Below are positions 3,167 through 35,036 of a stretch of DNA of 39,686 bases, one piece after another. This stretch comes from Candidatus Schekmanbacteria bacterium (lineage in GTDB: Bacteria; CSSED10-310; JACPHN01): the NCBI GenBank assembly GCA_016188575.1, contig JACPHN010000239.1, forward strand, positions 1-39,686. Direction: 5' to 3'. The number at the start of each line of letters is the position of its first letter. The stretch's first letter is position 1. The position numbers and the translations under genes were made by a program. The notes under the pieces are model-generated. The model was not told where the DNA came from, ran no database searches, and saw nothing but the letters and a program-made list of their open reading frames with translations.

Positions 3167-3209
3167 TCGGGCTGAACCGAGGTGGAGGAGCCAGAGATGA
3201 CCAAGGTCA

Positions 3210-3830
3210 GTGCGCTGCGCATCGTTCGCATGTTCTGTCTGCTATCTTGCTGGCTGCAACCAGGAGCGGCGAGCGCCGGCACCCGAAGAGCTCAAGATCG
3301 GATTGCGGTTCGACGCCTTGCTATCGCTGGTCTCTGCGGAGCTTTCGCGCGGTGGACGCCGCGTGCTCGTGGAGGAGAGTGACGCTCAAGCCTCCGGCAG
3401 CCGCTCGATACTGCACGTCGGTGAGCCGGAAGGGAGCAAGGCAACCGTCCTGACCTCGGTAGCCCATCCCGCATCGCCGCTGGCCGCCGTCTTCGGGCCC
3501 GACGGCCAGCAGGTCTATTATGTCCTGGGCGGCGACACGGGGTTCTCGATTGTTCGGCAGACTCCTGGCTCGCCCGCTCCCCAAACCGCCGTGGAGCTTG
3601 CGGCCGGGCTCGGTGGTCCCTGCCGGATTCCGCCGCAGCGCCTGTCCTGGAGCCGCGGAGGAGATCTCGTTCTGCGCGGCTCCGCGGCCTGTGGAACGCG
3701 CCTCGTGGCGCTCGACTTGTCAAGACGCGAGGTCGTGTGCGCGACCCGTATTTTCGCGCACACCTGCGCCGCCGACGAGCGCGAAAATGGCGCGAGCGAG
3801 CAATGTACCAGTGAGCTTGTGCTGCCGTAA
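3210..3830 (+). CDS. Putative lipoprotein of unknown function
   Basis: 206 residues from GTG 3210. A short hydrophobic stretch ends in a lipobox-like LAGC about 16 residues in, followed by a charged linker and a body with beta-propeller-like phrases (AAVFGPDGQQVYYVLGGD, LSWSRGGDLVLRG, ALDLSRREVV), suggesting a WD40/TolB-like surface fold. It has several cysteines near the C-terminus. The start is uncertain: a much better ribosome site (GGAGGAG) precedes ATG 3197 in another frame, which encodes a good signal sequence (MTKVSALRIVRMFCLLSCWL) but soon runs out of sense. Removing one base near 3245-3250 would join that signal sequence to the LAGC frame, so the gene may be frameshifted. No specific family recognised. 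Confidence 0.5.
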   Translation: MRCASFACSVCYLAGCNQERRAPAPEELKIGLRFDALLSLVSAELSRGGRRVLVEESDAQASGSRSILHVGEPEGSKATVLTSVAHPASPLAAVFGPDGQQVYYVLGGDTGFSIVRQTPGSPAPQTAVELAAGLGGPCRIPPQRLSWSRGGDLVLRGSAACGTRLVALDLSRREVVCATRIFAHTCAADERENGASEQCTSELVLP

Positions 3831-3936
3831 GATGCGGCCGACTGCAGCGCGCCAACCCGCGGTTCATGGTACAGTATCGGCGAGCGCGCCTGCGCATCGC
3901 TCCGGTCATCTCCACATTCCTTTCTCCGAGGTCGCC

Positions 3937-4602: not shown

Positions 4603-6434
4603 GCTCGGGCGCGCGGTCCTTCCGGCGCCGCGGCTCCATCAGCGCGGTACTTGCGTGCCTGCTCCTGGGCGCCTGCCGGGGCCTCCCCCCCGCTGGCGAG
4701 CGTCCTGCCGCCCCCGCTGGCGCGGCGATACAGGCGCACCCCGCGGCGAAGGAGGACATCGCTCCCGAAGCGTCCTCGGGGCTCCGGCACCTGGAGTCGG
4801 TGCGCGCGCGCCACTTCATGGTCGCCGCCGCGAACCCCTACGCCGCGGCCGCCGGATACGAGATTCTCCTCGCCGGCGGGAGCGCCACCGACGCGGCGAT
4901 CGCCATGTCGCTCACGCTTGCTCTGGTTGAACCGCAGTCCTCCGGGATCGGAGGCGGGGCGTTCCTGTTGTGCTTCGATGCCGGCGCGAATGCCGTGATC
5001 GCATACGACGGCCGTGAAACAGCCCCATCCGCGGCCACTCCCGACATGTTTCTCGGTCCGGATGGAGGTGCGATGGAGTTCCTGGACGCCGTCATCGGAG
5101 GCCTTTCGGTGGGCGTCCCCGGGTTGCTGAGGATGCTGGAGCTCGCGCATCGCGAACACGGCAAGCTGCCGTGGGACCGCCTGTTCGCGCCCGCGATACA
5201 GCTTGCCGAGCGGGGGTTTGTCGTCTCGCCTCGCCTTCATGCGCTCCTCGCCATGGATCCGTTTCTCAGACAAAGCGCGGCGCCTCGCCAGCAGTACTAC
5301 CTCACGACCGGCGAGCCGCTGCCGGTCGGAACAATCCTGACCAACCGGCCGCTGGCCGAGGTGCTGCGCGCGGTGGCGAGCGGCGGCGCCGACGCCTTCT
5401 ACACCGGAGCCATTGCCCGAGACATCGCCGCGGCGGTCCAGAGCGCGGCGCCCCGCCCGGGGCGCCTGGCACTGGCTGACCTGCAAGGGTATCAGGCCAG
5501 GAAGCGCTCTCCGGTTTGCTCAACCTACCGGCGCTACCGAGTGTGCGGGATGCCACCACCGACCTCGGGCGGCATCACCACGCTGCAGATTCTAGGGATG
5601 CTCGACACATTCGACCTCCCCGCCCTCCCTGCGGAAGGGCCGGAGGCCACCCATCTGTACCTCGAGGCAAGCCGGCTCGCTTTTGCGGACCGCGATTCCT
5701 ATCTCGCCGATCCTGACTTCGTAACAGTCCCGACAGCCGCGCTGCTTGATCCCGCCTACCTGAAGCAGCGCGCGCGGCTCATTCTCCCAGACCACCCACC
5801 GGGGACCGCACTTCCAGGCAGACCGGCCGGCGCGGAGCACCGCGGTACGGATCGCTCCCCCGAGCTCCCCTCAACCACGCATCTGGCTGCCGTCGACGCG
5901 GACGGGAACGCCGTCACCATGACTGCGAGCATCGAGAATCTGTTTGGCTCGCGCATCATGGTTCATGGCTTCCTGCTCAACAACGAGCTGACCGATTTTT
6001 CGTTTGTCCCCGAGGAGGATGGCCACAGCATCGCAAACCGCGTCGAACCCGGGAAACGCCCGCGCTCCTCGATGAACCCTGTGCTCGTGTTCGCACAGGA
6101 CACGGGCGAGCTCAAGCTGGCGATCGGTTCCGCCGGAGGAAGCCGCATCATCGGTTTCGTCACGCGCGTGCTCCTTCTCGTGCTCGATGGGGAGATGGAC
6201 ATTCAACAAGCGATCGATCGCCCTCACGTGCTCAATCGGAATGGCCCGACTGAAGTCGAAAACGTTGCGGGCGCCCAGGCCATTGCCGAAAGCCTCCGGG
6301 CCAGGGGGCACGAGGTCATTCTGGGCGAGCTCAATAGCGGGACGCAGGCCATCGTGGTACAGCGCGACGACCGCGGACGCCACTACGTGGGTGGCGCCGA
6401 TCCGCGTCGCGAAGGCCGGATTCTGGGGGAATAG
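4599..6434 (+). CDS. ggt: Gamma-glutamyltransferase (glutathione hydrolase), lipoprotein form
   Basis: 611 residues starting at a GTG that overlaps the preceding stop. A basic start and hydrophobic run end in a lipobox (L23-G-A-C26), so the enzyme should be lipid-anchored outside the cytoplasm. Family landmarks are intact: the gamma-glutamyl-binding DGRETAP (Arg139), the autoprocessing PSTTHLAAVD with predicted nucleophile Thr426, GNAVTMTASIENLFGSRI, LLNNELTDFS, and GSAGGSR (510-516). The precursor should self-cleave before Thr426 into large and small subunits and remove the gamma-glutamyl group from glutathione, releasing cysteinylglycine. Coupling to the ATC-hydrolase-like gene and proximity to sulfate transport point to scavenging of sulfur compounds. 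Typical GGTs are about 550-600 residues, so the length is normal. Confidence 0.92.
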   Translation: MSSGARSFRRRGSISAVLACLLLGACRGLPPAGERPAAPAGAAIQAHPAAKEDIAPEASSGLRHLESVRARHFMVAAANPYAAAAGYEILLAGGSATDAAIAMSLTLALVEPQSSGIGGGAFLLCFDAGANAVIAYDGRETAPSAATPDMFLGPDGGAMEFLDAVIGGLSVGVPGLLRMLELAHREHGKLPWDRLFAPAIQLAERGFVVSPRLHALLAMDPFLRQSAAPRQQYYLTTGEPLPVGTILTNRPLAEVLRAVASGGADAFYTGAIARDIAAAVQSAAPRPGRLALADLQGYQARKRSPVCSTYRRYRVCGMPPPTSGGITTLQILGMLDTFDLPALPAEGPEATHLYLEASRLAFADRDSYLADPDFVTVPTAALLDPAYLKQRARLILPDHPPGTALPGRPAGAEHRGTDRSPELPSTTHLAAVDADGNAVTMTASIENLFGSRIMVHGFLLNNELTDFSFVPEEDGHSIANRVEPGKRPRSSMNPVLVFAQDTGELKLAIGSAGGSRIIGFVTRVLLLVLDGEMDIQQAIDRPHVLNRNGPTEVENVAGAQAIAESLRARGHEVILGELNSGTQAIVVQRDDRGRHYVGGADPRREGRILGE

Positions 6435-11274: not shown

Positions 11275-13275
11275 GTGGCCGCGTTGCCAGGCGAGGGGTC
11301 GGTGCGACGTCTGCCGCTAAGTCTGCTGCTGGCCGCGATCGTTGCAGGGCTGGTCCTGTCCGTGCTCGCGTGCATCGTGCCAGCGGGTCTGGGCATTCTG
11401 GAGGAGCTCGCGGTGGAGAACGCGAGGACGCGGGTCGAGCTGGCGGCAACCTCGGCGGCGGAAGGCGCGACGGAGTACGCTACGGAGGCGGAAACCGGCG
11501 CGCGGCTGCTGGCCGAACGGCCGACGCTGCTCGGGCTGGTCGCGGCCGGCGAGAGCGCACCGCTCGGCGCTTTCCTTGAGCGCTTCCGGCTCACCGCCGG
11601 GCTTGCCGGCTGCGCGATTGTTCGCGGCGGCGTCGCGGTGGCCGCGACACCAGGGCCGATCCCGTGGAGCGAGCTCGGGCAGGTCGAGGGCCGCCAGTAC
11701 CGCACGCTCGGTGCACGGGCGGCCGCGGTGGTTGCCGTGGCCGCGCTCGATCTCGAGCTCGAGCCGCAGGCCCGGGCAGTGGTCGTGCGCTGGCTGGACG
11801 ATCAGCTCACGGCCCGTTTGAGCGCGCGGCTCGGTTTGCCCGTCCGTCTGGAGCTGGGCTTGGCGGCGGCGGAGACGAGCGGGCCGCCCGACGCCTTTGT
11901 TGCCCGGCGCACGCTGGGAGGGTCGCCCGAGGCCCCGGTACGTGTGGTCGTTGCACTCTCGCGATCTGAAGTGTCGGCAACGCTGCGGCCGCTGCGCCGC
12001 ACGTTCTTTGTCATTGCGTTAGGCACTGCCGCGGTCGCCGCCGCGCTTGGAGTCTATGCGGGTCACAGCATCGCGCTGCCGCTGCGCGCACTGGGCGAAG
12101 CTGCGGAGCGGATCGGCGCGGGAGATCTCGTCACGCCGATCAGGCCGGGGCGAGGCGCCGAGGTCGGCGCCCTCGCGGGCCGGATGGAGGACATGCGCCA
12201 GCGCCTGCGCTCGCTCACCGCCGAGCTGCGCCGGCGAGAAGAAGAGGCCCAGGCGCTCCTGGGGAACATGGTCGAAGGCGTATTCGCGGTGGATGCGGAG
12301 CGGCGCATTCAATACCTGAATGCCCAGGGGGCGGCGCTGCTGGGCGTGGAGGCAGCGGCGGCGCGGGGTCGGAGTTGCGGGGACGTCTTGCGCGCGCTGA
12401 ACGCGAGCGGAGCTCGACCCTGCGAAGACGAGTGCCCCATCGTCCATGCGCGCTCCCGCGGGAGCTCACGAGCCGTCGAGCACCTGCACCTGGCACAAGG
12501 GGAAAGAACGGTAGTGATCACGAGCGCACCCCCGTCCGGCTCCACACAGGTCCAGATCATTCGGGATGAAACTGACATCGAGGCGGCACGGCGGGCGCGC
12601 GACGCCGTGCTCGCGAGCGTCTCTCACGAGCTGAAGACGCCGCTGACGGCGCAACTGGCTTCCATTGAGTTGCTGCGCGACGGGCTGCGCAGCATGCCGA
12701 CGGCGAGTGCCGAGCAACTTGTGGGAGCCATGGAGCGCAGTACGCTGCGCCTGGTGCGGCTGGTCGACAATCTCCTTGAAAGCGTCCGCATCGAAACCGG
12801 GAAAACGGCATTGCGGCGGGTGCCGGTGGATCTCGAGGTGGTGGTAGAGGAAGCGGCGGCCATGACCCGGCCGCTACTGGACCAGCGCGGGCAGACGTTG
12901 AGCGTCGAGCTGCCTGAGCCGCCGCTGGAGATCGCCGGCGACCCGGGGCAGCTCGTACAGGTGCTGGTCAACGTCCTCGCCAACGCGAACAAGTTTGGGC
13001 CAGACGGTTCGACGATTCGCGTGGGCGGTGAAAGGAGCGGCGGCTGGCTTTCGGTGTGGGTCGACGACATGGGGCCCGGCGTGCCGGCATCGCAATCGAG
13101 CTCCATCTTCGGTCAGTTTCAGCGCCTCGGCGGTGCCAAGGCGGCCGGCATGGGCCTGGGCCTGTGGATCGCCAAATCACTGGTGGAGCGGCACGGCGGA
13201 CACCTTGGCGTGTCTGCGTCGCCGCAGGGCGGCGCCCGCTTCACGCTCACGTTCCCGCGGGGAGGAGCTGCGTGA
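11275..13275 (+). CDS. Membrane sensor histidine kinase with extracytoplasmic, HAMP and PAS domains
   Basis: 666 residues from GTG 11275. Order: transmembrane helix 1 (about 14-38), an extracytoplasmic sensor of about 200 residues, transmembrane helix 2 (FFVIALGTAAVAAALGVYAG, about 243-263), HAMP, PAS (about 325-430), HisKA with phospho-acceptor His451 in ASVSHELKTPLT, and a HATPase with N box NVLANANKFG, DDMGPGVP and GMGLGLWIAKSLVERHGG. The PAS carries three cysteines (Cys368, Cys383, Cys387; the last two in PCEDECP), a pattern that could bind a metal or sense redox. The gene lies seven bases after cysW and overlaps the response regulator by four, so a role in sensing sulfate, its status or transporter activity is likely but not proved by sequence. 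Confidence 0.9.
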   Translation: MAALPGEGSVRRLPLSLLLAAIVAGLVLSVLACIVPAGLGILEELAVENARTRVELAATSAAEGATEYATEAETGARLLAERPTLLGLVAAGESAPLGAFLERFRLTAGLAGCAIVRGGVAVAATPGPIPWSELGQVEGRQYRTLGARAAAVVAVAALDLELEPQARAVVVRWLDDQLTARLSARLGLPVRLELGLAAAETSGPPDAFVARRTLGGSPEAPVRVVVALSRSEVSATLRPLRRTFFVIALGTAAVAAALGVYAGHSIALPLRALGEAAERIGAGDLVTPIRPGRGAEVGALAGRMEDMRQRLRSLTAELRRREEEAQALLGNMVEGVFAVDAERRIQYLNAQGAALLGVEAAAARGRSCGDVLRALNASGARPCEDECPIVHARSRGSSRAVEHLHLAQGERTVVITSAPPSGSTQVQIIRDETDIEAARRARDAVLASVSHELKTPLTAQLASIELLRDGLRSMPTASAEQLVGAMERSTLRLVRLVDNLLESVRIETGKTALRRVPVDLEVVVEEAAAMTRPLLDQRGQTLSVELPEPPLEIAGDPGQLVQVLVNVLANANKFGPDGSTIRVGGERSGGWLSVWVDDMGPGVPASQSSSIFGQFQRLGGAKAAGMGLGLWIAKSLVERHGGHLGVSASPQGGARFTLTFPRGGAA

Positions 13276-14000
13276 AGGTGCTCGTCGTTGACGATGACCC
13301 GGAGCTGTTGCCGCTGGTCGCTTTTGCGCTGCGGCGCGAAGGCTATTTCGTGCTCGAGGCCGCGACCGGCGAGGCGGCGCTGGCGACGGTGACGAGCGAA
13401 CGGCCGGATCTCGTGGTGCTCGACGTCAATCTGCCGGGAATCGATGGCTTCGAGGTGTGCCGGCGCATCCGCCGTGGCGGCGACAGTACGCCCGTGCTGA
13501 TGCTTACGGTTCGCGGCGATGAGCTGGATGAAGTGACCGGGCTAGACGCAGGAGCGGACGACTATCTCACGAAACCATTCAGCCCGCGCACGCTGCTGGC
13601 GAGGGTGAGGGCGCTATTGCGTAGGGCCGGGCATGAGCGCGCCCGGCGGGTCACGGCGGGTGCTGTGGAGCTCGATGCGGAGCTGCACGTGCTCCACATC
13701 ACAGGCAAATCTCCGGTGCGTCTCACGCCGCTGGAGTTCCGGCTCCTGCAGCTCTTGGTGATGCAGGGGGGCCGCGCGGTGCGCAGCGAGCGCATTCTTC
13801 TACACGTGTGGGGAACGCACGGGGCTGCGGACCGCCAGCTTCTCAAGCAACTGGTTCACCGCCTGCGACAGAAGATCGAGGAGGATCCTTCGACACCGCA
13901 GCGGCTGCTCGCTGTTCCCGGTCTGGGGTATCGGTGGGAGAGCGCTCCTTCTGAAAAAACGGAGCGCCCTCCTGGGGAGGATAGCCCGGCGCCGGAATAA
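13272..14000 (+). CDS. OmpR/PhoB-family response regulator
   Basis: 242 residues starting at GTG 13272, which overlaps the kinase stop (GTGA), so the pair is translationally coupled. Receiver domain: acidic pocket VVDDDPE, phospho-acceptor Asp51 in VVLDVNLPG, switch Thr in MLTVRG and Lys in DYLTKPFSP. The C-terminal winged-helix DNA-binding domain is clear (LTPLEFRLLQLL, VRSERILLHVWG, LLKQLVHRLRQKIE, VPGLGYRW). It is the cognate partner of the preceding kinase. The dyad at 6467-6487 upstream of cysA is one candidate target. The last 20 residues are a polar tail overlapping the terminator. Confidence 0.93.
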   Translation: MKVLVVDDDPELLPLVAFALRREGYFVLEAATGEAALATVTSERPDLVVLDVNLPGIDGFEVCRRIRRGGDSTPVLMLTVRGDELDEVTGLDAGADDYLTKPFSPRTLLARVRALLRRAGHERARRVTAGAVELDAELHVLHITGKSPVRLTPLEFRLLQLLVMQGGRAVRSERILLHVWGTHGAADRQLLKQLVHRLRQKIEEDPSTPQRLLAVPGLGYRWESAPSEKTERPPGEDSPAPE

Positions 14001-25894: not shown

Positions 25895-28800
25895 ATGGCT
25901 GGCGCCGCGTACGATCGAGAGCTGGACGCGATTGCGGATCAGCGGTCGCCCGTGCCGGGTCTTCCCTACCACCATGCGCATCGCCGCGCCGCTCTCCCGG
26001 TCGCAATCGATGGGTACCGGGTGCTGCGCGAGCTTGGCCGGGGCGGCACCTGCGTGGTGTATCTGGTCAAGGATGATGCGGGCAATCCATTCGCGTTGAA
26101 GATCCCGTACCCGGCGGTGAGGAAGCCTCGCATCATTGGCCGGCTCCTCGAACGTGAGGTGCGGCTCCAGCAGGCGCTGGATCATCCGGGCATCGCGAAA
26201 ATCGTGCGCGTGGGCGCGGTTGGTGAGCTCCCGTACCTGCTGCTCGAATACGCGGATGGTGGCGACCTGACGGAGCTGTGGGGCCATTGCAAGGCGATGC
26301 GCACGACGGGGGAACGGATCATCGAGGCGCTGAAGCTGCTCGAGCAGGTGGCGGGCGCGATCGGATACGCCCACGAGCACGGCGTCCTCCACCGCGACAT
26401 CAAGGCGCGAAACATCCTGGTAGTGGGCGGCGAGCTCAAGGTGAGCGACTTCGGCCTGGCGGTGGCGATGGCCGGCGACGAGGTGCTGCACTCGCGCACG
26501 GCGACGCGGGACAGGATGGGCACGCTCGGGTACATGGCGCCGGAGCTGGAGATCAGCGCCAAGAACGCGACGGTGGCGTCGGACGTTTACGCGCTGGGAG
26601 CGATGGCGTGTTGGATGGTGACGGACGAGGTGCCGTGGGCGGACGACCCGGACCGGCCGTATCGCCCGCTGCTGAGCACGCTGCTGGGTAAACACGCGGA
26701 GTCGCGCGTGCACGCGGTGGTCGAGGAGACATTTCTGGGGTGGATCGCGGAGCAACCCCAACGTCGCCCGGCCAGCGTGGCGGTGATGCGGGAGCAGATC
26801 GCCAAAATGCTGCGCTTGGGGACAGCGGGGGTGCTGCAGAGCAGCACGGCGTCGGCGTCGATGCTGGCGGAAACCGTCGCGACGCAGGGACCACCGATCG
26901 CCACGGCCGAGTCCCGGCGCCGGATCCAGGTGAGGACAGACCCGCGGGTGATCCTGGTGCCGGAGCTTGTCGTGCATCGCGGTCGGATCGGGCCGGTGGC
27001 GGTGGAATCGTTCATTGGGCAGGGCGGTTTCGGGCAGGTCTTTATGGGGCGGCTCGATGGCGAACTGGTGGCGGTCAAGCTTGTGCCCGCGACCGACGAC
27101 CGCGCCGCGGCGCGCTTCCGGGACGAGATGCGCGTCCTGTCGAGCTTTACGCACTCCAACATCGTCCGTATGCTCGACGTCGTCCACGACCCCGACCTCG
27201 GCGCCGTCGGGCTCGTCATGGAGTACGTCCCCGATAGCCTCTCCGCGTGGCTCGCGGACCCGGAGCGGAGCGCGCAACTGAAAGGCCAGGTCGCGACGCG
27301 GCTCTTGCGCGATGTGCTCGCGGCGCTGGTCTATCTCGAAACCTCCGGCGTGCTGCACCTGGACCTCAAGCCGGCAAACATCCTGATCGCGCAGCGGGAC
27401 GGCATACTGGTGCCGAAGATCGCGGACTTCGGCCTGGCGCGCCAAGCCGCGGCGGCCGGTGGGGGCATCGGTGGCACGCTCGCCTGGGCCGCGCCCGAGA
27501 TGCTCGCGCGCCTGGTGCCTGCCTGCCGCGAACGCCATCCGGACTTCGCCGCCATGATGCCGTCGTCGCGCAGCGATTATTACGCCTTCGGGCTCATCGC
27601 CCTGCATATCTATGCCGGGCGGGTGCCGTTCGAGGAGGGCGACCTCGAGGCTCGGTTCACCTGGATGCCGGACATCGAGGACGCGATCGGCGCGCCACGA
27701 GACGTGCAGCCGGTATTGTTCCGGTGCCTGAACCCGAACCCCGAGCGGCGGCCGGCGTCGGCGATCGAGATCCTCGCGACCTGGGACGAGGCACTGGGAG
27801 ACGACAGCACGGACTGGCCGGCGATCATCGCGAGCCACCTGCGGGCGCCGGCGCTGACGAGCGCGGCGCGCGAGGTTGCGAACGCGGTGGTCGAAGCGCT
27901 GCGAGAGGGCCCGGGCGCGCGGGTGTTCCTGCGCGGGCCTGCGGAGAGCGGACGATCGCGGTTGCTCGGGGCGATCGCGAGTCTTGCGGCGATCGAAGGC
28001 GTTGCCGGAGGCCTGCGCGTGCTGGAGGGCGACGCGGTGTGCGACGATGCCGGTGGTGCGATCGTAGCCGCTGGCGAGGCGCCTCCGGCTGGTTGGCAGG
28101 TACTCGGCATCCCCGCGCTCGATGCGGCCGCCGCGCGCGACCTGCTCGGGGCGGTGTTTGGCGAGGTCGTGGATGTGGACGACCTGGCGGCGAAGCTGGT
28201 GCGGGCGGCCGATGGCAAGACGGGACTTGCGGTGCGCCTCTTACGGGCGACGGTGTCCACGGGTATCGCCAGGCGCACCGAAACGCTGGCCTGGTACCTT
28301 GATTGGGTGGAAATGGACCGGGCGGCGCTCGCGGACGGGGAGATCATCGCGCGGCGCGAGACCTTGGTAGCGGGACTTCCCGCGGACGCGCGTCGTCTGC
28401 TCGGAGCGCTGGCGCTGGCCGCGGGTCCGGTGGACCGCGAGGGGCTTGCCCAAGCGCTGGGTCTGGATCATCCGGACTGGTGCTTGCCTGCCGTGCTGCT
28501 CGCGGACACGACAGCCGAGCTCGGCGAAGCGTTCCTGGGCGCGTCGCTGCGCGCGCGGCCGCCAGAGGGGCTCGACCGGGCCGCCATCGCACCGCTCGTC
28601 GAAGCGCGCGACCCCGAGCGTGCCTTCGAGCTCTACGCCGCCGCTGGCTCCGCCCACGCGCGACGCGAGGCCGCCGGTCTCGGCGTCTGGCTTCTCACCG
28701 ACAGCCACGAGCGCGAGATGCCCGCGTATCGCGTCATCGAGATCGCCGATCGCTGCGAGCAGGACGGCCTGTGGCTCGGTGCCGCGGATCGATTCGTCGG

Positions 28801-30208
28801 CCAGCACGCCCGCGCCTGGACGTACTTCGAGTTTCGGGACAGCAATGCTCCGGGGCTGCACGATGCCCTCGACAAGCTCGAGGCCATCGCCCGCGAGCTG
28901 GGCGATCCGGTTGCCGCGGCACGCGCCCAGCTCGTCCGCTGGGCCGCGATTCCCGTGCCGGCGCCGCGCGACATCAGCGCAGTGGACGCGGTCGTGGACG
29001 TGCTCATCCAGGCGGGCGATGAGTATCTGCGCTTCGAGGGCGAGTTTGGGCGCGTCTTCGCGCTGTGGCATTACACGCTCATGCCCGACGCGTGGCGGCG
29101 GTTCATGGCCGCGTTGGAGACGTTCGACCTGGCGCGCGTGCCGCTGCGGCTCTTCGTCTGCGCGCTCAACTATCTCTCTGCATTCGCCACGACCACCGAA
29201 CAAATCGAAGGCTTGCGGCCTTTCTGTATCCGTGCTCACGATTCAGTTCCTCTCAATGCAACCAGGGCACGTAAAGCACTGGCGATGAGCAAGGCCGCAT
29301 TAGATGCAGCAGATGGCTGTTATGATAACGCGCACGTAGGACTCGCAGCGGTGTGTAAATGTATCAAGCGCGATGTAGAACCATATACATGGAACAACGC
29401 ATACAAATACGCACTTAGTTATGCACCACTGGTTGGTGACATGACCTGTGCTAAACGATTTTCACGTATTTTGCATCATTTTACTAAAGACGATAATAAA
29501 CGGCAGTCAGTTATTGTTATAATTGCAGCGGAGATTCTGCGACTTGAGGGATCTTATACAATAGCAGTGCAATTATTGAAGAATGTGTTGAATGCCAGTC
29601 CCATAATTACAGATTACGTCGCCGTTATGAAAATCGTTATCGCTTGCGATATAGGCAATGAAATCGAGCTCGATGTTCGACAACTAGATCACGCCGCAAC
29701 GCAAATTCGCAGTCTGGCCTGGTTCACCTGGGCGCGCATCCTGCTGCGCCAGCGCCGCCTCGAAGAAGCCCAACATGCGGCGGAGATGGCGCTGGCGGTG
29801 CCCGTGGAAGCCACCGAGGACCTGCGTTTCAACGCGCTGACAGTCGCGGCTCGCGCCGCGGTTGCGTTCTGGCGACGCGATCGCACTCCCGAGATCCGCA
29901 TGAAAGCGTTGAGCTGGATCGCCGAGATCCCGGACGCGGGTCGCTGGTATTCGGTGCGGCGCGTCTTGCTGGCGCACCTGGAGGACGACCCGGCGCGCGC
30001 CGGGACCTGGTTGCGGGAAGCGCTCGTCTTTGGGCTGGAATCCGGCATGCTGCCTTTTGCCCTCGAGGCCGCGGTGGCGCTCGCAGAGCGTTTTCCTGGC
30101 GCCGGGTACGACGAATGTTGCCAACGTCTCGTGAACGCCATCGCCGCCGACCTCGCGCCCGAGCACAAAGCCATTTTCCTTGCCTCCTGGAGGACGATAT
30201 GCGCCTGA
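25895..30208 (+). CDS. Giant tandem serine/threonine kinase with ATPase-like and helical-repeat regions
   Basis: 1437 residues from ATG 25895 (GGGAGAG upstream). Kinase 1 (about 38-310) is complete: glycine loop LGRGGTCVVY, Lys69, HRDIKARN with Asp168, Asp185-Phe-Gly and MAPE. Kinase 2 (about 365-630) has GQGGFGQVF, Lys395, DFG at Asp511 and APE, but His488-Leu-Asp490 in place of HRD, so it lacks the RD arginine. Then comes a P-loop-like GPAESGRS (681-688, Arg replacing Lys) in a shortened STAND/AAA-like ATPase without a clear Walker B. The rest (about 860-1437) is helical repeat, TPR-like. This resembles PknK-type regulators with a second kinase added. Bases 29215-29700 are markedly AT-rich inside the repeats. 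It overlaps the next gene by ten bases. Confidence 0.9.
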   Translation: MAGAAYDRELDAIADQRSPVPGLPYHHAHRRAALPVAIDGYRVLRELGRGGTCVVYLVKDDAGNPFALKIPYPAVRKPRIIGRLLEREVRLQQALDHPGIAKIVRVGAVGELPYLLLEYADGGDLTELWGHCKAMRTTGERIIEALKLLEQVAGAIGYAHEHGVLHRDIKARNILVVGGELKVSDFGLAVAMAGDEVLHSRTATRDRMGTLGYMAPELEISAKNATVASDVYALGAMACWMVTDEVPWADDPDRPYRPLLSTLLGKHAESRVHAVVEETFLGWIAEQPQRRPASVAVMREQIAKMLRLGTAGVLQSSTASASMLAETVATQGPPIATAESRRRIQVRTDPRVILVPELVVHRGRIGPVAVESFIGQGGFGQVFMGRLDGELVAVKLVPATDDRAAARFRDEMRVLSSFTHSNIVRMLDVVHDPDLGAVGLVMEYVPDSLSAWLADPERSAQLKGQVATRLLRDVLAALVYLETSGVLHLDLKPANILIAQRDGILVPKIADFGLARQAAAAGGGIGGTLAWAAPEMLARLVPACRERHPDFAAMMPSSRSDYYAFGLIALHIYAGRVPFEEGDLEARFTWMPDIEDAIGAPRDVQPVLFRCLNPNPERRPASAIEILATWDEALGDDSTDWPAIIASHLRAPALTSAAREVANAVVEALREGPGARVFLRGPAESGRSRLLGAIASLAAIEGVAGGLRVLEGDAVCDDAGGAIVAAGEAPPAGWQVLGIPALDAAAARDLLGAVFGEVVDVDDLAAKLVRAADGKTGLAVRLLRATVSTGIARRTETLAWYLDWVEMDRAALADGEIIARRETLVAGLPADARRLLGALALAAGPVDREGLAQALGLDHPDWCLPAVLLADTTAELGEAFLGASLRARPPEGLDRAAIAPLVEARDPERAFELYAAAGSAHARREAAGLGVWLLTDSHEREMPAYRVIEIADRCEQDGLWLGAADRFVGQHARAWTYFEFRDSNAPGLHDALDKLEAIARELGDPVAAARAQLVRWAAIPVPAPRDISAVDAVVDVLIQAGDEYLRFEGEFGRVFALWHYTLMPDAWRRFMAALETFDLARVPLRLFVCALNYLSAFATTTEQIEGLRPFCIRAHDSVPLNATRARKALAMSKAALDAADGCYDNAHVGLAAVCKCIKRDVEPYTWNNAYKYALSYAPLVGDMTCAKRFSRILHHFTKDDNKRQSVIVIIAAEILRLEGSYTIAVQLLKNVLNASPIITDYVAVMKIVIACDIGNEIELDVRQLDHAATQIRSLAWFTWARILLRQRRLEEAQHAAEMALAVPVEATEDLRFNALTVAARAAVAFWRRDRTPEIRMKALSWIAEIPDAGRWYSVRRVLLAHLEDDPARAGTWLREALVFGLESGMLPFALEAAVALAERFPGAGYDECCQRLVNAIAADLAPEHKAIFLASWRTICA
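29215..29700. other. AT-rich block A inside the tandem kinase gene
   Basis: GC falls to about 30-42% per 60 bases (for example 18 of 60 at 29461-29520) while flanks exceed 60%. The frame stays open and encodes helical repeat residues about 1108-1268. Codons end mostly in A or T, unlike the rest of the gene. Confidence 0.85.
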
Positions 30209-31605
30209 GTCGCGCTTGCCTCATGTTCGGCCTGGTCTTCTGCCTGCCAGTGGTGTCTTGGGCGGTGGGCGCGGTCACTGCCGAGGTGGATCAAACACTC
30301 GGGCTCGCTGCGTTGCGCCAGCAGACCGGGCTCACAGGAGCTGGCGTTACCATCGGAATAATAGGTGAAGGCATCTATGACTGGCGAAACTACATTGAAT
30401 CTGGCGATTTGCCTGCTGATATTAGATTTCTTGATTGGCAAGAAGGAAATGGCCTTAATCTAGGTCATGTACAAGTGATTCATGATATTGCACCAAACGC
30501 CGAATTACTTTTCGGTGTATATGGTGGCGGTCCGTCAGATACGATAACGCAAGATATGGTTTCCCAGGGAGCAAATATTATATTGGTGATGAATCATGTA
30601 GAACCTTACACAAATCTTTACGAAGACACATGGCGGAGTTATACAAGAGAGGTTGGCAAAACATCTCTAATCATATCGCCGGCGGGCGATTATGGTAACG
30701 CACATTACCGTGGCACGTTTACAGATAGTGGCAACGGTGAGCACGATTTCGGTAACGGCAATACCGTCGTTGAAATACAAACTCCGCCTGGATGTAGCAC
30801 ACGTATGTTCCTTGGCTGGAGCGAAACGTTTACCACGCCTATCTATTCTGACTACCGTATGAGATTATACACGTCAGATCACCAGCTTTGGAGTGAAGTC
30901 ACATCAGGAAGTTATCCTCTTGCCTCTGTTTGGGATACGGAACATACAGAAACGATAATCTGGTATGTTTCCGTGTGGAAGGCGGCAAACGCGCCCGTTC
31001 TACCGTTCGATGTAAGGGCCAAGTGCGATTTCCCAGGGCCGGTGGGCGGTCTTTCAACAACGATTGATCCAGCGTATCGGATCGACAAAGGCTCGATTGT
31101 CGACTTCGGTGCGCTACCCGAGGTGCTGACGGTGGGCGCGTTGGATCAGACGACCGAGGTGGCACCAGGCCGGTACGCGGTGCGTCCCTACTCCGGGCGC
31201 GGTCCCGCCGAAATCACCATCCCGAGCACCGAGGTGCGGCCCAAACCCGACATCATGGCGCCGGATTGCCAGAGCGTGTACGGCAACAACGGTATAGAAA
31301 CGGGCACATTTGTTGATTGCGGTTCATCGATCAGCGCCGCGGTGGTGGCAGGAATCGCGGCGCTCGTCCAGGAGAAGCAAGGTTTTGTGCACACGGTGGA
31401 CATCAAGGCGCTGCTGACGGGCACCGCTGCCGATCTCGAGGCCCCCGGCTTCGACGGCGTGAGCGGCTACGGGCAAATCGATCCCGCTGCTGCACTGGTG
31501 CTGCCCCGGGTGCCGGTCAGCGCCGCCTGGACGGTGCTCGCGATGCTACTTGGTGTCTCGGCTTCGATTCGCGCTAACGTCTCCACCGTTGCCATTCGGA
31601 GTTAA
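30199..31605 (+). CDS. Exported subtilase-like protein, probably catalytically inactive
   Basis: 468 residues. ATG 30199 follows GGAGG and overlaps the end of the kinase gene, so the two are coupled. A signal peptide (MRLSRACLMFGLVFCLPVVSW) leads a subtilisin (S8) fold: GAGVTIGIIGEGI corresponds to the 'GVTVAVIDTGI' strand but has Gly56 where the catalytic Asp should be; VIHDIAPNAELLFG matches the region after the catalytic His, but the His itself seems absent; GSSISAAVVAGIAALV keeps the Ser (377) yet lacks the usual Pro-His. It is therefore likely a pseudo-protease used for binding. The C-terminus has a VPVSAAW-hydrophobic-Arg end like IPTL/VP-type sorting anchors. Bases 30350-30960 are AT-rich. 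The 3' end overlaps the converging gene by 32 bases. Confidence 0.75.
   Translation: MRLSRACLMFGLVFCLPVVSWAVGAVTAEVDQTLGLAALRQQTGLTGAGVTIGIIGEGIYDWRNYIESGDLPADIRFLDWQEGNGLNLGHVQVIHDIAPNAELLFGVYGGGPSDTITQDMVSQGANIILVMNHVEPYTNLYEDTWRSYTREVGKTSLIISPAGDYGNAHYRGTFTDSGNGEHDFGNGNTVVEIQTPPGCSTRMFLGWSETFTTPIYSDYRMRLYTSDHQLWSEVTSGSYPLASVWDTEHTETIIWYVSVWKAANAPVLPFDVRAKCDFPGPVGGLSTTIDPAYRIDKGSIVDFGALPEVLTVGALDQTTEVAPGRYAVRPYSGRGPAEITIPSTEVRPKPDIMAPDCQSVYGNNGIETGTFVDCGSSISAAVVAGIAALVQEKQGFVHTVDIKALLTGTAADLEAPGFDGVSGYGQIDPAAALVLPRVPVSAAWTVLAMLLGVSASIRANVSTVAIRS
30350..30960. other. AT-rich block B inside the subtilase-like gene
   Basis: About 35-40% GC per line (21 of 60 at 30421-30480, 22 of 60 at 30541-30600), starting some 50 codons after the signal peptide and fading near 30960, with GC-rich sequence on both sides and no break in frame. 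Confidence 0.85.
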
Positions 31606-32623
31606 TGGAACCGGTTTCGCCCGGATTTTCAGCGCGCTCAAGGAATTTTGAGTTTGGATGGAGAGCGTCAACACCCCATATCTGTGGTTCATCGTCATAA
31701 CCATCTCTATAATGGCGAATTGTTTTTATTAGAATGCCGTCAATGTTGTATATCTTTTCGTCTGTGTACGGTATATTAAGTGATGCGCATGTTTTGATGC
31801 TCCATCCGCCAACACTTTCACCATCTGTTGCCCACCAGGTAGCAATGATAACATCCTTCACAGACATTGGGTTCGTGTCTTCCTCGTTGTAAACGTGATA
31901 GTTTGCAACTTTTTGTGGTCCGATGATTTTTGGTGTATCATAAGGCTGCGCCGTATATGGTTTTCCATCAAGTTTGAAAGCAACCGTGCTCCCTGCATAG
32001 CCTAGAAAGTTCTCAAAGCCCATAGGATTCAATATCCACGTCTTACTATTATTTGGATCGGCATATACGCCATCCGCAAACGGAATGCCGTATCGCGGTG
32101 TCAGATCGGTCCATCTATATCCAGAAATACCCTTGATCTCGCTGGCATAGACCGTGACGGACCAGGCATTGGCTTTCCGCACCCCGGCGTTGAGCTGCCC
32201 GCTCCAGGTGTTCTTCCAGTTCAAGTTGACATCGCACGAGTGATCCGCGGCGGCCCAACCGGCGAGGATCAGGTACGGTTTGGTGGCGGAGTATTGTGCA
32301 CCGGCGATGTTGCGGTAGCCTGCTGAGTCCGTGGTATAGGTGCCGAGCCAGGCGCTGGGGCTGTACACGAGAACAGCACATCCGCTGCACGGATACCAGG
32401 CGTTGTTATACCAGCGCAGGACGCGCACCTGGAAGACGGTGGGCGCGCTGGCAAGGTCGGTGGCGGCCTCGTCGCCCGAGCGCATGGTGGCCGTGCCAGA
32501 ACCGGCTCTGGCACCGCGCAGGAACACGTTGTCCTTGATCGGTGGGGGGCCGGCAAAGGCCGTTGCCGCAACGAGCGATAGCCAAACAGCAGCTCCGAGC
32601 GCAACAGCGCCACGTGTTCTCAT
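31574..32623 (-). CDS. Secreted protein of unknown function
   Basis: 349 residues. ATG 32623 overlaps the stop of the upstream TPR-like gene (ATGA), so they form an operon. The signal peptide (VALGAAVWLSLVAATAFAG) is clear. Residues about 60-120 look like a small beta-sandwich (VFQVRVLRWYNNAWYPCSGC, TDSAGYRNIAG), as in carboxypeptidase-regulatory or Ig-like folds. The remainder has no motif I recognise; it is aromatic and Asn-rich (WILNPMGFENFLGY, IIATWWATDGESVGGW). Cysteines occur as CSGC, SCD and TC. The 3' half of the gene (31620-32140) is AT-rich. Its stop lies inside the converging subtilase-like gene. Confidence 0.7.
   Translation of the reverse strand: MRTRGAVALGAAVWLSLVAATAFAGPPPIKDNVFLRGARAGSGTATMRSGDEAATDLASAPTVFQVRVLRWYNNAWYPCSGCAVLVYSPSAWLGTYTTDSAGYRNIAGAQYSATKPYLILAGWAAADHSCDVNLNWKNTWSGQLNAGVRKANAWSVTVYASEIKGISGYRWTDLTPRYGIPFADGVYADPNNSKTWILNPMGFENFLGYAGSTVAFKLDGKPYTAQPYDTPKIIGPQKVANYHVYNEEDTNPMSVKDVIIATWWATDGESVGGWSIKTCASLNIPYTDEKIYNIDGILIKTIRHYRDGYDDEPQIWGVDALHPNSKFLERAENPGETGSINSEWQRWRR
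31620..32140. other. AT-rich block C inside the secreted-protein gene
   Basis: About 37% GC at 31741-31800 and similar in neighbouring lines, covering the last half of the minus-strand gene, whereas its first half (32160-32620) is GC-rich. The frame remains open throughout. Confidence 0.8.
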
Positions 32624-33411
32624 GAAGGTCTCCTCGTGTCCACAGTGGATTGAGCGAGCAATTGGCTCGCAAGACGGGGATCGCTCCCCGCGAAAAACAG
32701 CGCCGCGTTGATGGCGATGCGCGGATCGTCTGGTGCGGCGTTGATGTGCGTGTGCCAGAGGCGCTCGGCCTGCTCATAGACGAGCGGGTCGTCGCCATAG
32801 ACGAGATTACCCCAGGTGGAGCCGGCAAAGGGCAGCTCGGGGTGGTGCTCGGTGAGCCAGAGCAGGTGCTCGTTGCGGTGGTCCCAGTCGCCGGGGCCGC
32901 CGGGATGCGCGGCGTAGTATCCGAGCAAGCGGACGCGGGCGTGCGGGTTGTCCGGAGCGGCGGTGAGGCGCTGCTCGATGGCGTGCACTTCATCGGCGCC
33001 GAGCGTGGCGCCTTCCTGCGCCAAGGCGTCGAGCATGCCGCGGGTCTCCGCCTGGAGCTGCTCGGCCTGGCGTTTGGTATCTTCGAACAGTTCCCACTCG
33101 GTCTGCGAGAAGGGACTTGGGGATGGCGAAGGTTGGGTACTTGCGGGCGTGGCCACAGGACGGTCTTTGCTGCGGGTGGCTGGATATGCTGTTGCCACGG
33201 ATGTAGCCGAAGCCGGGGCGCGGCTGTCGACGCCAGTATTCAGGTGGCGTGCGGGGCGCTCGGGGAGCTCCGCGGATACCTGGGCTGACTGGAGGCGCTG
33301 AGGCAGGGCATGCGGATCTGCCTGGAGCCTGCGCGGGGCTATCCAGAGGATGGCTCCGAGGATGGTGGCGATGGCGGTGAGACTGATGAAGGCAAGGCGC
33401 AGGTACGGCAT
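32620..33411 (-). CDS. Membrane-anchored helical-repeat protein
   Basis: 263 residues from ATG 33411, preceded by GGAAG; an in-frame TTG at 33429 is a weaker choice. One hydrophobic helix near the start (LAFISLTAIATILGAILWIA) anchors it. A Pro/Ser/Thr-rich linker (about 35-95) leads to a coiled helix (EDTKRQAEQLQAETRGMLD) and then TPR/Sel1-like repeats containing TAAPDNPHARVRLLGYYAAH and NAAPDDPRIAINAALFFA. These appear in extracytoplasmic assembly or scaffold proteins. The stop overlaps the ATG of the secreted protein gene, so the pair probably act together. A sigma54-like sequence immediately upstream would place the transcript start only three bases before the ATG. Confidence 0.7.
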   Translation of the reverse strand: MPYLRLAFISLTAIATILGAILWIAPRRLQADPHALPQRLQSAQVSAELPERPARHLNTGVDSRAPASATSVATAYPATRSKDRPVATPASTQPSPSPSPFSQTEWELFEDTKRQAEQLQAETRGMLDALAQEGATLGADEVHAIEQRLTAAPDNPHARVRLLGYYAAHPGGPGDWDHRNEHLLWLTEHHPELPFAGSTWGNLVYGDDPLVYEQAERLWHTHINAAPDDPRIAINAALFFAGSDPRLASQLLAQSTVDTRRPS

Positions 33412-33424
33412 GTTCTTCCAAATG

Positions 33425-33441
33425 AGCAATAATCATGCCAA
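33425..33441 (-). promoter_or_regulatory. Sigma54-like -24/-12 sequence before the TPR-like gene
   Basis: Minus strand TTGGCATG-ATTA-TTGCT, with GG and GC ten bases apart and 12 of 13 consensus positions. Its predicted start (about 33414) is almost at ATG 33411, so either the message is leaderless or this match is not used. Confidence 0.4.
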
Positions 33442-33689
33442 TGCTATCATTTCAATCCTTTGCTCTATTACGCGGCTACAGGCCAAGCATAGCAACCGCC
33501 ATGCGAGACGTCAATGTCACACCTGTACCTCCATGTCCACCATGTTGACCAACCACGCCACGCCAGCGTTCCGGGCAAGGCCCGGCGGAGCAGATAGTGA
33601 GGGCGGGAGCCGTTGCCCTCGCCTGCGAACCGCTGTATGAAGGGGCCGACGAACGGGTTCGCTGTCGTGTTAGCGTTGGAGGATCGATC

Positions 33690-35036
33690 ATGGCTTCTCG
33701 GGACCGGAGGTTCGCGCGAAACATCGGGACGCGGCGGCATGTTGCCGCCTTCGCGGTCTGGTCTGCGCTCGCTTTTCTGCTCTGGATGGCTCATCCAGCA
33801 AGCGCGGCAGACACCAACTGGTCCGGCGTTCAAGCGCTGAGCTCCGACTATACCGTCAACGCCGGAGATCGCCTCATTATCGCTCCGGGCACGCGCATCC
33901 AGGTCGCGGCCAGGGCCGAGTGCCCGACCGGGACCGCCGACAACGAAACCCTCCCGGACTGCTGGGAGATTATTGTACGCGGCGAATTGCTCGCCGACGA
34001 TCCGACGGGAGGCGCCATCGTCTTCTCCTCCAATGGCACGCCAAGCGACTGGGGCGGCATCGCCATTCGCGATGGCGGCAAGGCGACGTTGCGCGGCGTC
34101 ACCATTCGTGACGCCAAGGTCGGCGTGCTGGCGGACGACGCCCACGGCACTGCCGAATCTCCGAACGTCAACATTGCGTTCTCGAGCTTCGACAACAATC
34201 AATACCACGCCATCTGGGCCTCCGGCGAATCCCACTCGGCGATCGCCAACAATCTGCTCCGCGACCATCCGGCGCAGCTAGACGGTTCCGTAATCAAGAT
34301 CTATACGAGCGGCGACGCGTCTACGGTGGTCAAGAACAATCTCATATTCGACAATCAAGAGGCGGGCATCACCGTCCAGGATTGCTCGCCGAGCATCGTG
34401 AACAACACCTTCATCGGCGGCGAGTATGGCCTCTTCTTGAAGGGGAGCACGGCGCTTCCCGATGTGCGCAACAACATCTTCTCCGAGTACACCTTTTTCG
34501 GCATTGGATGTGACGCCGGCTTTCTGGGGAATCCGGACCCGATTGTCGAGTTCAACAACGTCCATTCCACGGCCGCGACGTCCAAGCCGATAGGTTTTGG
34601 CGACGATTACTGGCAGCCTTGCGGCCTCGATTGTCCGACTACGGAATCAAACCCCTCCGCCTGTGGTGCCTTCACGGGTGGCGCCAACATCAGCACAGGC
34701 GGCGCCGGGCTGTTCGTAGACGCGGCGCAGCACGACTATATGTTGCCTGTTGGTAGCCCTAGCGTGGACGCGGGCGACCCCAATTTGCAGTACACCGATG
34801 CGTCCTGGGTGGTCGGAAATGGTAATGAAAACCGTAACGACCAGGGCGCATACGGTGGGCCGGGCGCGAGCCCGCGGGCGGGTGCCGCAGTGCCGCTGCT
34901 TTCCGCCGCCGCCGCTGCCTTGTCGCTCGGCGCTATCGGCAGGCGGCTGCGAACGCGGCGAATGAGCGCGCGGAGCCCGGGCGCCGGCAGCACAGGCCGC
35001 TGGCGTGCACTGTTTTCGTTTCGGCAAACGGCTTGA
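33690..35036 (+). CDS. Secreted right-handed beta-helix protein with C-terminal membrane tail
   Basis: 448 residues; ATG 33690 is six bases after TTGGAGG. A basic start and hydrophobic run (AFAVWSALAFLLWMAHPASA) form a signal peptide. Repeated 'xNNxF/Ixx' coils (FDNNQYHAIW, IANNLLRDH, VKNNLIFDNQEAGITV, IVNNTFIGGEYGLFL, VRNNIFSEY) show a parallel beta-helix of the pectate-lyase/NosD type. GSPSVDAGDP near 360 is a common motif in choice-of-anchor beta-helix surface proteins. The C-terminus has a hydrophobic stretch followed by GRRLRTRR, a sorting or anchoring tail. No catalytic residues can be assigned; a polysaccharide-binding or lyase role is possible. It is followed 17 bases later by the GAF-GGDEF gene. 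Confidence 0.85.
   Translation: MASRDRRFARNIGTRRHVAAFAVWSALAFLLWMAHPASAADTNWSGVQALSSDYTVNAGDRLIIAPGTRIQVAARAECPTGTADNETLPDCWEIIVRGELLADDPTGGAIVFSSNGTPSDWGGIAIRDGGKATLRGVTIRDAKVGVLADDAHGTAESPNVNIAFSSFDNNQYHAIWASGESHSAIANNLLRDHPAQLDGSVIKIYTSGDASTVVKNNLIFDNQEAGITVQDCSPSIVNNTFIGGEYGLFLKGSTALPDVRNNIFSEYTFFGIGCDAGFLGNPDPIVEFNNVHSTAATSKPIGFGDDYWQPCGLDCPTTESNPSACGAFTGGANISTGGAGLFVDAAQHDYMLPVGSPSVDAGDPNLQYTDASWVVGNGNENRNDQGAYGGPGASPRAGAAVPLLSAAAAALSLGAIGRRLRTRRMSARSPGAGSTGRWRALFSFRQTA

What the first reader, a model, noticed from the sequence alone, without database searches (positions are those of the whole stretch)
29215..29700. AT-rich, in-frame block in the helical-repeat part of a tandem kinase
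A 480-base segment of about 37% GC sits inside a 4.3-kb gene that is otherwise about 68% GC, with sharp edges and no loss of frame. Codon endings switch to A/T. This looks like domain replacement from a low-GC source, or a hypervariable segment under different selection. Being in the repeat region, it could change partner specificity.
Basis: seen in the sequence. Interest (0 to 1): 0.75.

Follow-up and report, generated by a model that had tools for sequence, protein, structure and literature searches.

The report
Mosaic AT-rich tracts in kinase cassette
A GC-rich bacterium carries at least eight related copies of a sensor-kinase gene cluster, and in the copy studied here three neighbouring genes each contain one sharply bounded AT-rich, highly variable stretch, most likely patches of divergent low-GC sequence swapped in by recombination between shared GC-rich flanks.

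Summary
In the kinase gene (25895-30208), GC3 falls from about 0.87 to 0.37 over 29166-29691, in frame and with sharp edges. It is not alone: the next gene (a subtilase-like pseudoprotease) and the convergent gene after it each have one such tract, at 30347-30970 and 31594-32139. The genome (9.2 Mb) holds at least seven further cassettes of this family plus fragments.

Aligning them shows that the block is homologous helical-repeat sequence, not a foreign domain, and more variable than its flanks in every closely related pair. Synonymous divergence to the nearest intact cassette (C153) jumps to saturation inside each tract and returns outside it. dN/dS in the kinase block equals that of its flanks. 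Residues invariant among paralogues still use A/T-ending codons inside the tracts, so relaxed protein constraint is not the cause. Site patterns change topology at both block edges (p = 2e-11). The kinase-1 module was also exchanged, with a crossover near 27230.

Best reading: a recombinational mosaic. Low-GC divergent alleles of variable segments are embedded in a GC-rich backbone shared among paralogous cassettes. The origin of the low GC (import or local process) is unresolved; no donor was found.

The parts
25895..30208 (+). Tandem Ser/Thr kinase with P-loop-like stretch and C-terminal helical repeats (1437 aa)
   Evidence: Pfam Pkinase E=4e-76, two stretches; motifs HRDIKARN-166, SDFG-184, HLDLKPAN-488, ADFG-510
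25895..27230 (+). Kinase-1 module, 88.8% identical in DNA to cassette C217; exchange junction near 27230
   Evidence: nucleotide identity to C217 falls .87 to .36 at 27245 while identity to C153 rises from about .44 to .77-.94
27935..27961 (+). P-loop-like motif GPAESGRSR (degenerate, R for K) at the start of a possible STAND/AAA-type domain
   Evidence: read from sequence; no Pfam hit for the domain in this protein
29166..29691 (+). AT-rich variable tract 1, in the helical-repeat part of the kinase (about residues 1091-1266)
   Evidence: HMM segment; GC4 .35; pS to C153 .74 vs .45 in flanks
30199..31605 (+). Secreted subtilase-like protein, probably a pseudoprotease
   Evidence: Pfam Peptidase_S8 E=5.9e-10; AF2 model pLDDT 83.7, best fold match CspB 4i0w E=3e-17; catalytic Asp, Glu and oxyanion Asn replaced relative to relatives
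30347..30970 (+). AT-rich variable tract 2, in the subtilase-like gene
   Evidence: HMM segment; GC3 .37 vs .77; pS to C153 mostly .63-1.08 vs .33-.50 in most of the C-terminal part
31574..32623 (-). Gene 3: secreted protein of unknown family, convergent with the subtilase-like gene
   Evidence: paralogues in C153, C207, C217 and C85 at the same place; no Pfam hit
31594..32139 (-). AT-rich variable tract 3, in the C-terminal half of gene 3
   Evidence: HMM segment; GC3 .40 vs .81; pS to C153 .78 vs .52
32620..33429 (-). Gene 4: conserved protein of the cassette with an N-terminal hydrophobic stretch, without an AT tract
   Evidence: paralogues in C153, C217 and C207; GC3 .57-.95 throughout

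Best explanation
The block is one of three low-GC, highly divergent tracts in a recombinational mosaic. The organism has a family of paralogous four-gene cassettes: a kinase with helical repeats, a pseudo-subtilase, and convergent genes 4 and 3. Homologous recombination among cassettes keeps the conserved GC-rich parts similar and has moved whole modules (shown: kinase 1; topology changes at both block edges). The three tracts carry divergent alleles of naturally variable parts of the three proteins and were not homogenised with the nearest intact cassette (shown). Their low GC most likely marks descent from a low-GC source cassette, whose conserved parts were later overwritten by, or joined to, resident GC-rich copies (inferred). 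Functionally, the kinase is probably a signalling sensor whose helical repeats bind a ligand or partner, and the variable tracts of the three proteins set the specificity of each cassette (inferred, untested).
For: Synonymous divergence C98-C153 steps from about .35-.5 to .6-.9 at the tract edges and back, in all three genes. Triad site patterns: upstream 77/46/63, block 151/53/45, downstream 55/81/38; chi-square p=2e-11. Module exchange at 27230. Residues invariant in three paralogues have GC3 .33-.45 inside the tracts and .80-.87 outside in C98 (p = 1.4e-7, 5.5e-9, 4.8e-7), so composition follows the DNA tract, not protein conservation. GC4 is nearly equal in the three tracts (.35.35.38), as expected from one source. 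AT state is patchy among cassettes: C207 has an AT-rich gene 3 tract (.47) but a GC-rich protease segment (.74). Convergent intergenic DNA is 67% GC, so the genome's weakly constrained DNA does not sit at low GC.
Against: No donor or orthologue was found in 385 other genomes (only 7 of the same phylum), plasmids or phages, so import is unproven. Several cassettes share AT-rich states at the same positions, which would need repeated exchange or old shared ancestry. The segment is also variable where it is GC-rich (C224-C253, identity .43 vs .65 and .55), so part of the divergence is intrinsic to the region. Saturated dS cannot separate an older origin from a faster local mutation rate. The chi-square treats linked sites as independent. 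C252 is a damaged copy.
Confidence: 0.55

Rival explanations
1. GC-biased conversion model. Recombination among paralogues and strains keeps the shared parts GC-rich; the hypervariable tracts are too different to recombine, lose this bias and drift to an AT-rich mutational equilibrium.
For: GC3 rises with identity to the closest paralogue (rho .52, n=388) and falls with pS (rho -.66); the most similar windows have GC3 .87 against a genome mean of .79 and single-copy kinase domains at .81. C252 is unhomogenised downstream of the block and is also lower there (GC3 .64).
Against: Windows without a close paralogue (identity .2-.4) still average GC3 .69, and the C207 and C85 protease segments are divergent but GC-rich (.74.81). 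Intergenic DNA is 67% GC. The equilibrium GC4 estimate from singletons is .65 with a very wide interval (0-.82).
Confidence: 0.22
2. Local hypermutation with an AT bias, targeted to the sensor segments.
For: dN and dS are raised together in the block with unchanged dN/dS; three adjacent genes are affected; edges are sharp.
Against: The only reverse-transcriptase match is one partial hit in a 163-aa frame on another contig, so no complete diversity-generating retroelement was seen. dN/dS of about .22 means most changes are old and filtered, not fresh random mutations. Topology changes at the edges need recombination anyway.
Confidence: 0.1
3. Ordinary relaxed or diversifying selection on a fast-evolving domain, with codon usage drifting as a by-product.
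For: The region is more variable than its flanks in every closely related pair; for C224-C253 the block dN/dS is somewhat higher (.43 vs .24 and .34).
Against: dN/dS is unchanged in the C98/C153/C252 triad; residues invariant among paralogues are equally AT-rich in codon endings; C224 and C253 are variable there but keep GC3 .72-.79.
Confidence: 0.08
4. Assembly or binning artefact (chimeric contig).
For: The genome is a fragmented assembly (275 contigs, 3.7% contamination), and several cassettes break at shared repeats.
Against: Frames stay open, the protein alignment runs through, C252 shows the same tract with the same edges, and three genes show the same pattern.
Confidence: 0.05

Closest known systems
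Rhs and polymorphic-toxin genes (GC-rich core, variable AT-rich extension; PMC7259588, PMC3482391)
   Same: A conserved GC-rich backbone joined to an AT-rich variable part within one frame; multiple copies per genome; recombination between copies
   Different: Here the variable tracts are mostly internal, stay homologous, are not toxin domains, and occur in three neighbouring genes at once
STAND/NLR-type sensors with variable C-terminal TPR sensors (PMC10907252, PMC7159879)
   Same: N-terminal signalling domain, P-loop-like region, C-terminal variable helical repeats; several paralogous systems per genome
   Different: The P-loop is degenerate here and no STAND Pfam domain was detected; kinase domains instead of nuclease or protease effectors; partner genes look secreted
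DGR-diversified sensors of multicellular bacteria (PMC10907252)
   Same: Putative sensors with a localised variable segment
   Different: No complete reverse transcriptase found and no second DNA copy of the block that could serve as template; the tract is 500-600 bases with low dN/dS, not a short repeat with adenine-directed changes
Csp subtilases and pseudoproteases (CspB 4i0w, CspC)
   Same: CspB is the best fold match of the protease-like model; subtilisin fold with an extra beta-rich region; loss of catalytic residues as in CspC
   Different: 14% identity; no link to spore germination

Membership tests
Mosaic gene family with recombining hypervariable segments | Paralogues with conserved flanks and a variable segment | tested here: met
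   Kinase flanks .79-.80 upstream and .63-.72 downstream, block .33-.57 in the C98/C153/C252 triad
Mosaic gene family with recombining hypervariable segments | Phylogenetic signal changes at segment edges | tested here: met
   Chi-square p=2e-11; module swap at 27230
Mosaic gene family with recombining hypervariable segments | Segment varies between strains of the species | not testable with these tools
   No sister strain is held; no orthologue in 385 other genomes
Diversity-generating retroelement target | Reverse transcriptase, template repeat and adenine-directed variation | tested here: not met
   One partial RVT_1 match on another contig only; dN/dS about .22; no second DNA copy of the block except C252 at 67%. 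The assembly is incomplete, so absence is not absolute
STAND/NLR-like sensor | NTPase domain between effector and sensor | tested here: inconclusive
   P-loop-like GPAESGRSR at residue 681, intact form GGRGAGKT in C224; no Pfam AAA/STAND hit in the window protein
Active subtilase (S8) | Intact catalytic Asp, His/Glu, Asn, Ser | tested here: not met
   Asp, Glu and Asn positions replaced; Ser present in C98 but replaced in C217, C85, C224 and C110
Ser/Thr protein kinase (Pkinase) | VAIK-like Lys, HxD, DFG | tested here: met
   Both domains carry the motifs; activity not tested

The most novel reading that the evidence does not exclude
A coordinated, multi-gene recognition system in which matching variable segments of a cytoplasmic sensor kinase and two secreted partners are exchanged between paralogous loci, giving the cell a set of distinct recognition specificities, with base composition serving as a fossil record of exchange and conversion tracts.
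Probability: 0.25. Interest if true: 0.75.

Novelty: new variant of a known kind. Interest (0 to 1): 0.5.

Why it matters
Variable segments in bacterial genes are usually known from one gene at a time. Here three adjacent genes alternate between shared GC-rich parts and divergent AT-rich parts, in a family repeated at least eight times in one genome. This gives a natural comparison for asking whether base composition follows recombination history rather than selection on the protein, and it points to a possible unstudied recognition system built from a sensor kinase and a pseudoprotease.

Tried and rejected
Foreign unrelated domain: rejected, the block aligns across paralogues. Silent donor copies of the block elsewhere: none apart from the C252 copy (67% DNA identity) and paralogue genes. 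Diversity-generating retroelement: only a partial reverse-transcriptase hit. Repeats, tandem arrays or special signals at the edges: only short, chance-like matches; promoter-like matches in the AT-rich DNA are somewhat more than expected (6 vs 2.1) but were not pursued. Orthologues in relatives: none. Plasmid or phage source: none. Another gene with an internal AT island (C40) is not a multi-copy family. The kinase C-terminal model from a single sequence is poor (pLDDT 51) and shows only that the region is helical; paralogue sequences from the fetch from genomes were not handed to that tool because its rule does not list them.

Full report
Observation. The AT-rich block is real and in frame. 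The HMM limits are 29166-29691. GC3 is 0.37 in the block and 0.85 just upstream. Such runs are rare in this genome: 0.96% of 40-codon windows have GC3 below 0.5, and 4 of 421 sampled genes have a run of 120 or more such codons.

Surroundings. The gene encodes two kinase domains with intact motifs, a degenerate P-loop-like stretch and a helical C-terminal part (low confidence). The ATG of a subtilase-like secreted protein at 30199 overlaps its last ten bases. Convergent to that lie gene 4 and gene 3. The genome (9.2 Mb, 275 contigs) holds paralogues of the subtilase-like gene in C153, C207, C217, C85, C224, C110 and C253, and a fragment in C252. Gene 3 is found in C153, C207, C217 and C85, and gene 4 in C153, C217 and C207. 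Related kinases lie beside them. Several contigs end inside the shared 5' half of the kinase, so the copy number is a lower limit.

Mosaic structure. DNA comparison shows that C98 (the window) is 88.8% identical to C217 over the first 1331 bases of the kinase and then loses similarity, while it is 79-81% identical to C153 and C252 from about base 1114-1201 onward, in C153 as far as the AT block. The switch lies near 27230. The first halves of C153, C224, C207, C253 and C110 are 85-92% identical to each other. In the triad C98, C153 and C252 the upstream flanks are equally similar (0.79-0.80), but the block is 0.57 for C98-C252 and 0.33-0.35 for the other two pairs. Informative sites change pattern at both edges of the block.

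Divergence and selection. For C98-C153 the synonymous difference is 0.45 upstream, 0.74 in the block and 0.45 downstream. dN/dS is 0.20, 0.23 and 0.26. The block is therefore older or faster at both kinds of site, without a detectable change in selection in this triad; in the GC-rich pair C224-C253 it is somewhat higher (0.43 against 0.24 and 0.34). The same steps in divergence occur in the subtilase-like gene and gene 3. In those two genes synonymous sites are saturated inside the tracts, so dN/dS cannot be given there.

Composition follows the DNA tract. Among residues that are the same in C98, C153 and C207, C98 uses G/C-ending codons at 0.45, 0.35 and 0.33 inside the three tracts and 0.87, 0.80 and 0.84 outside. 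This argues strongly against relaxed constraint on the protein as the cause. Low GC is not general in unconstrained DNA here: convergent intergenic gaps are 67% GC (gene calling was simple, so some gaps may hold short genes).

Origin of the low GC. Two models remain. Import: low-GC alleles entered and were joined to GC-rich resident flanks. Conversion bias: shared parts are kept GC-rich by recombination, and tracts that cannot recombine drift. The correlation of GC3 with similarity to the closest paralogue, and the high GC3 of shared parts compared with single-copy kinases, fit the second. The GC-rich state of equally divergent segments in C207 and C85, the near-equal GC4 of the three tracts and the intergenic GC fit the first better. 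No donor was found. That mutation in bacteria is generally AT-biased and that GC-biased conversion has been proposed is taken from PMC9339322.

Partner proteins. The subtilase-like protein models well (pLDDT 83.7) and matches subtilisin folds, best CspB. Compared with relatives in other phyla, its catalytic Asp, Glu and oxyanion Asn are replaced, and the Ser is lost in several paralogues, so it is probably a binding protein. Its AT tract covers the N-terminal half of the fold and part of a beta-rich insertion (residues 50-257). Signal peptides were judged by eye.

Function. The closest functional analogies are sensors with variable helical repeats and a signalling N-terminus, as described for STAND proteins and DGR targets in multicellular bacteria (PMC10907252, PMC7159879). 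Membership is not claimed. That the variable tracts set specificity is inference.

Verdict. A real, rare and informative pattern: a recombinational mosaic with three AT-rich variable tracts in a repeated cassette. Selection, foreign domain, retroelement and artefact readings are disfavoured; the source of the low GC remains open.

Noticed in passing
L026 (C252) 1600-3890: A damaged cassette copy: the kinase lacks about 90 residues (730-820) with a frame change near 1760, and similarity to the subtilase-like gene stops at 3752. Its AT tract has the same edges as in the window.
   Followed up: partly
L042 11542-13806 (C40): A 755-aa protein without Pfam hit has an internal AT-rich island (12308-13339); its N-terminal 100 residues, outside the island, are shared with C177.
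   Followed up: partly
L035, L043, L046, L053, L064: Other genes with long AT-rich runs, some in exopolysaccharide-type genes (sugar transferase, MBOAT, AlgX-like).
   Followed up: no
L076 3017-7138 (C259): A kinase-AAA_16-TPR protein with an AT-rich island (4783-5107) between its NTPase and TPR parts, a possible second family with the same design.
   Followed up: no
window 33597-35036: Secreted beta-helix protein with a C-terminal hydrophobic stretch followed by arginines that resembles a surface-sorting signal; the subtilase-like paralogues end in a similar way.
   Followed up: no
whole genome G000: About 150 matches to the kinase query, so a very large Ser/Thr kinase repertoire.
   Followed up: no
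G000:C164:42327-42521 (L191): Single partial reverse-transcriptase match.
   Followed up: no
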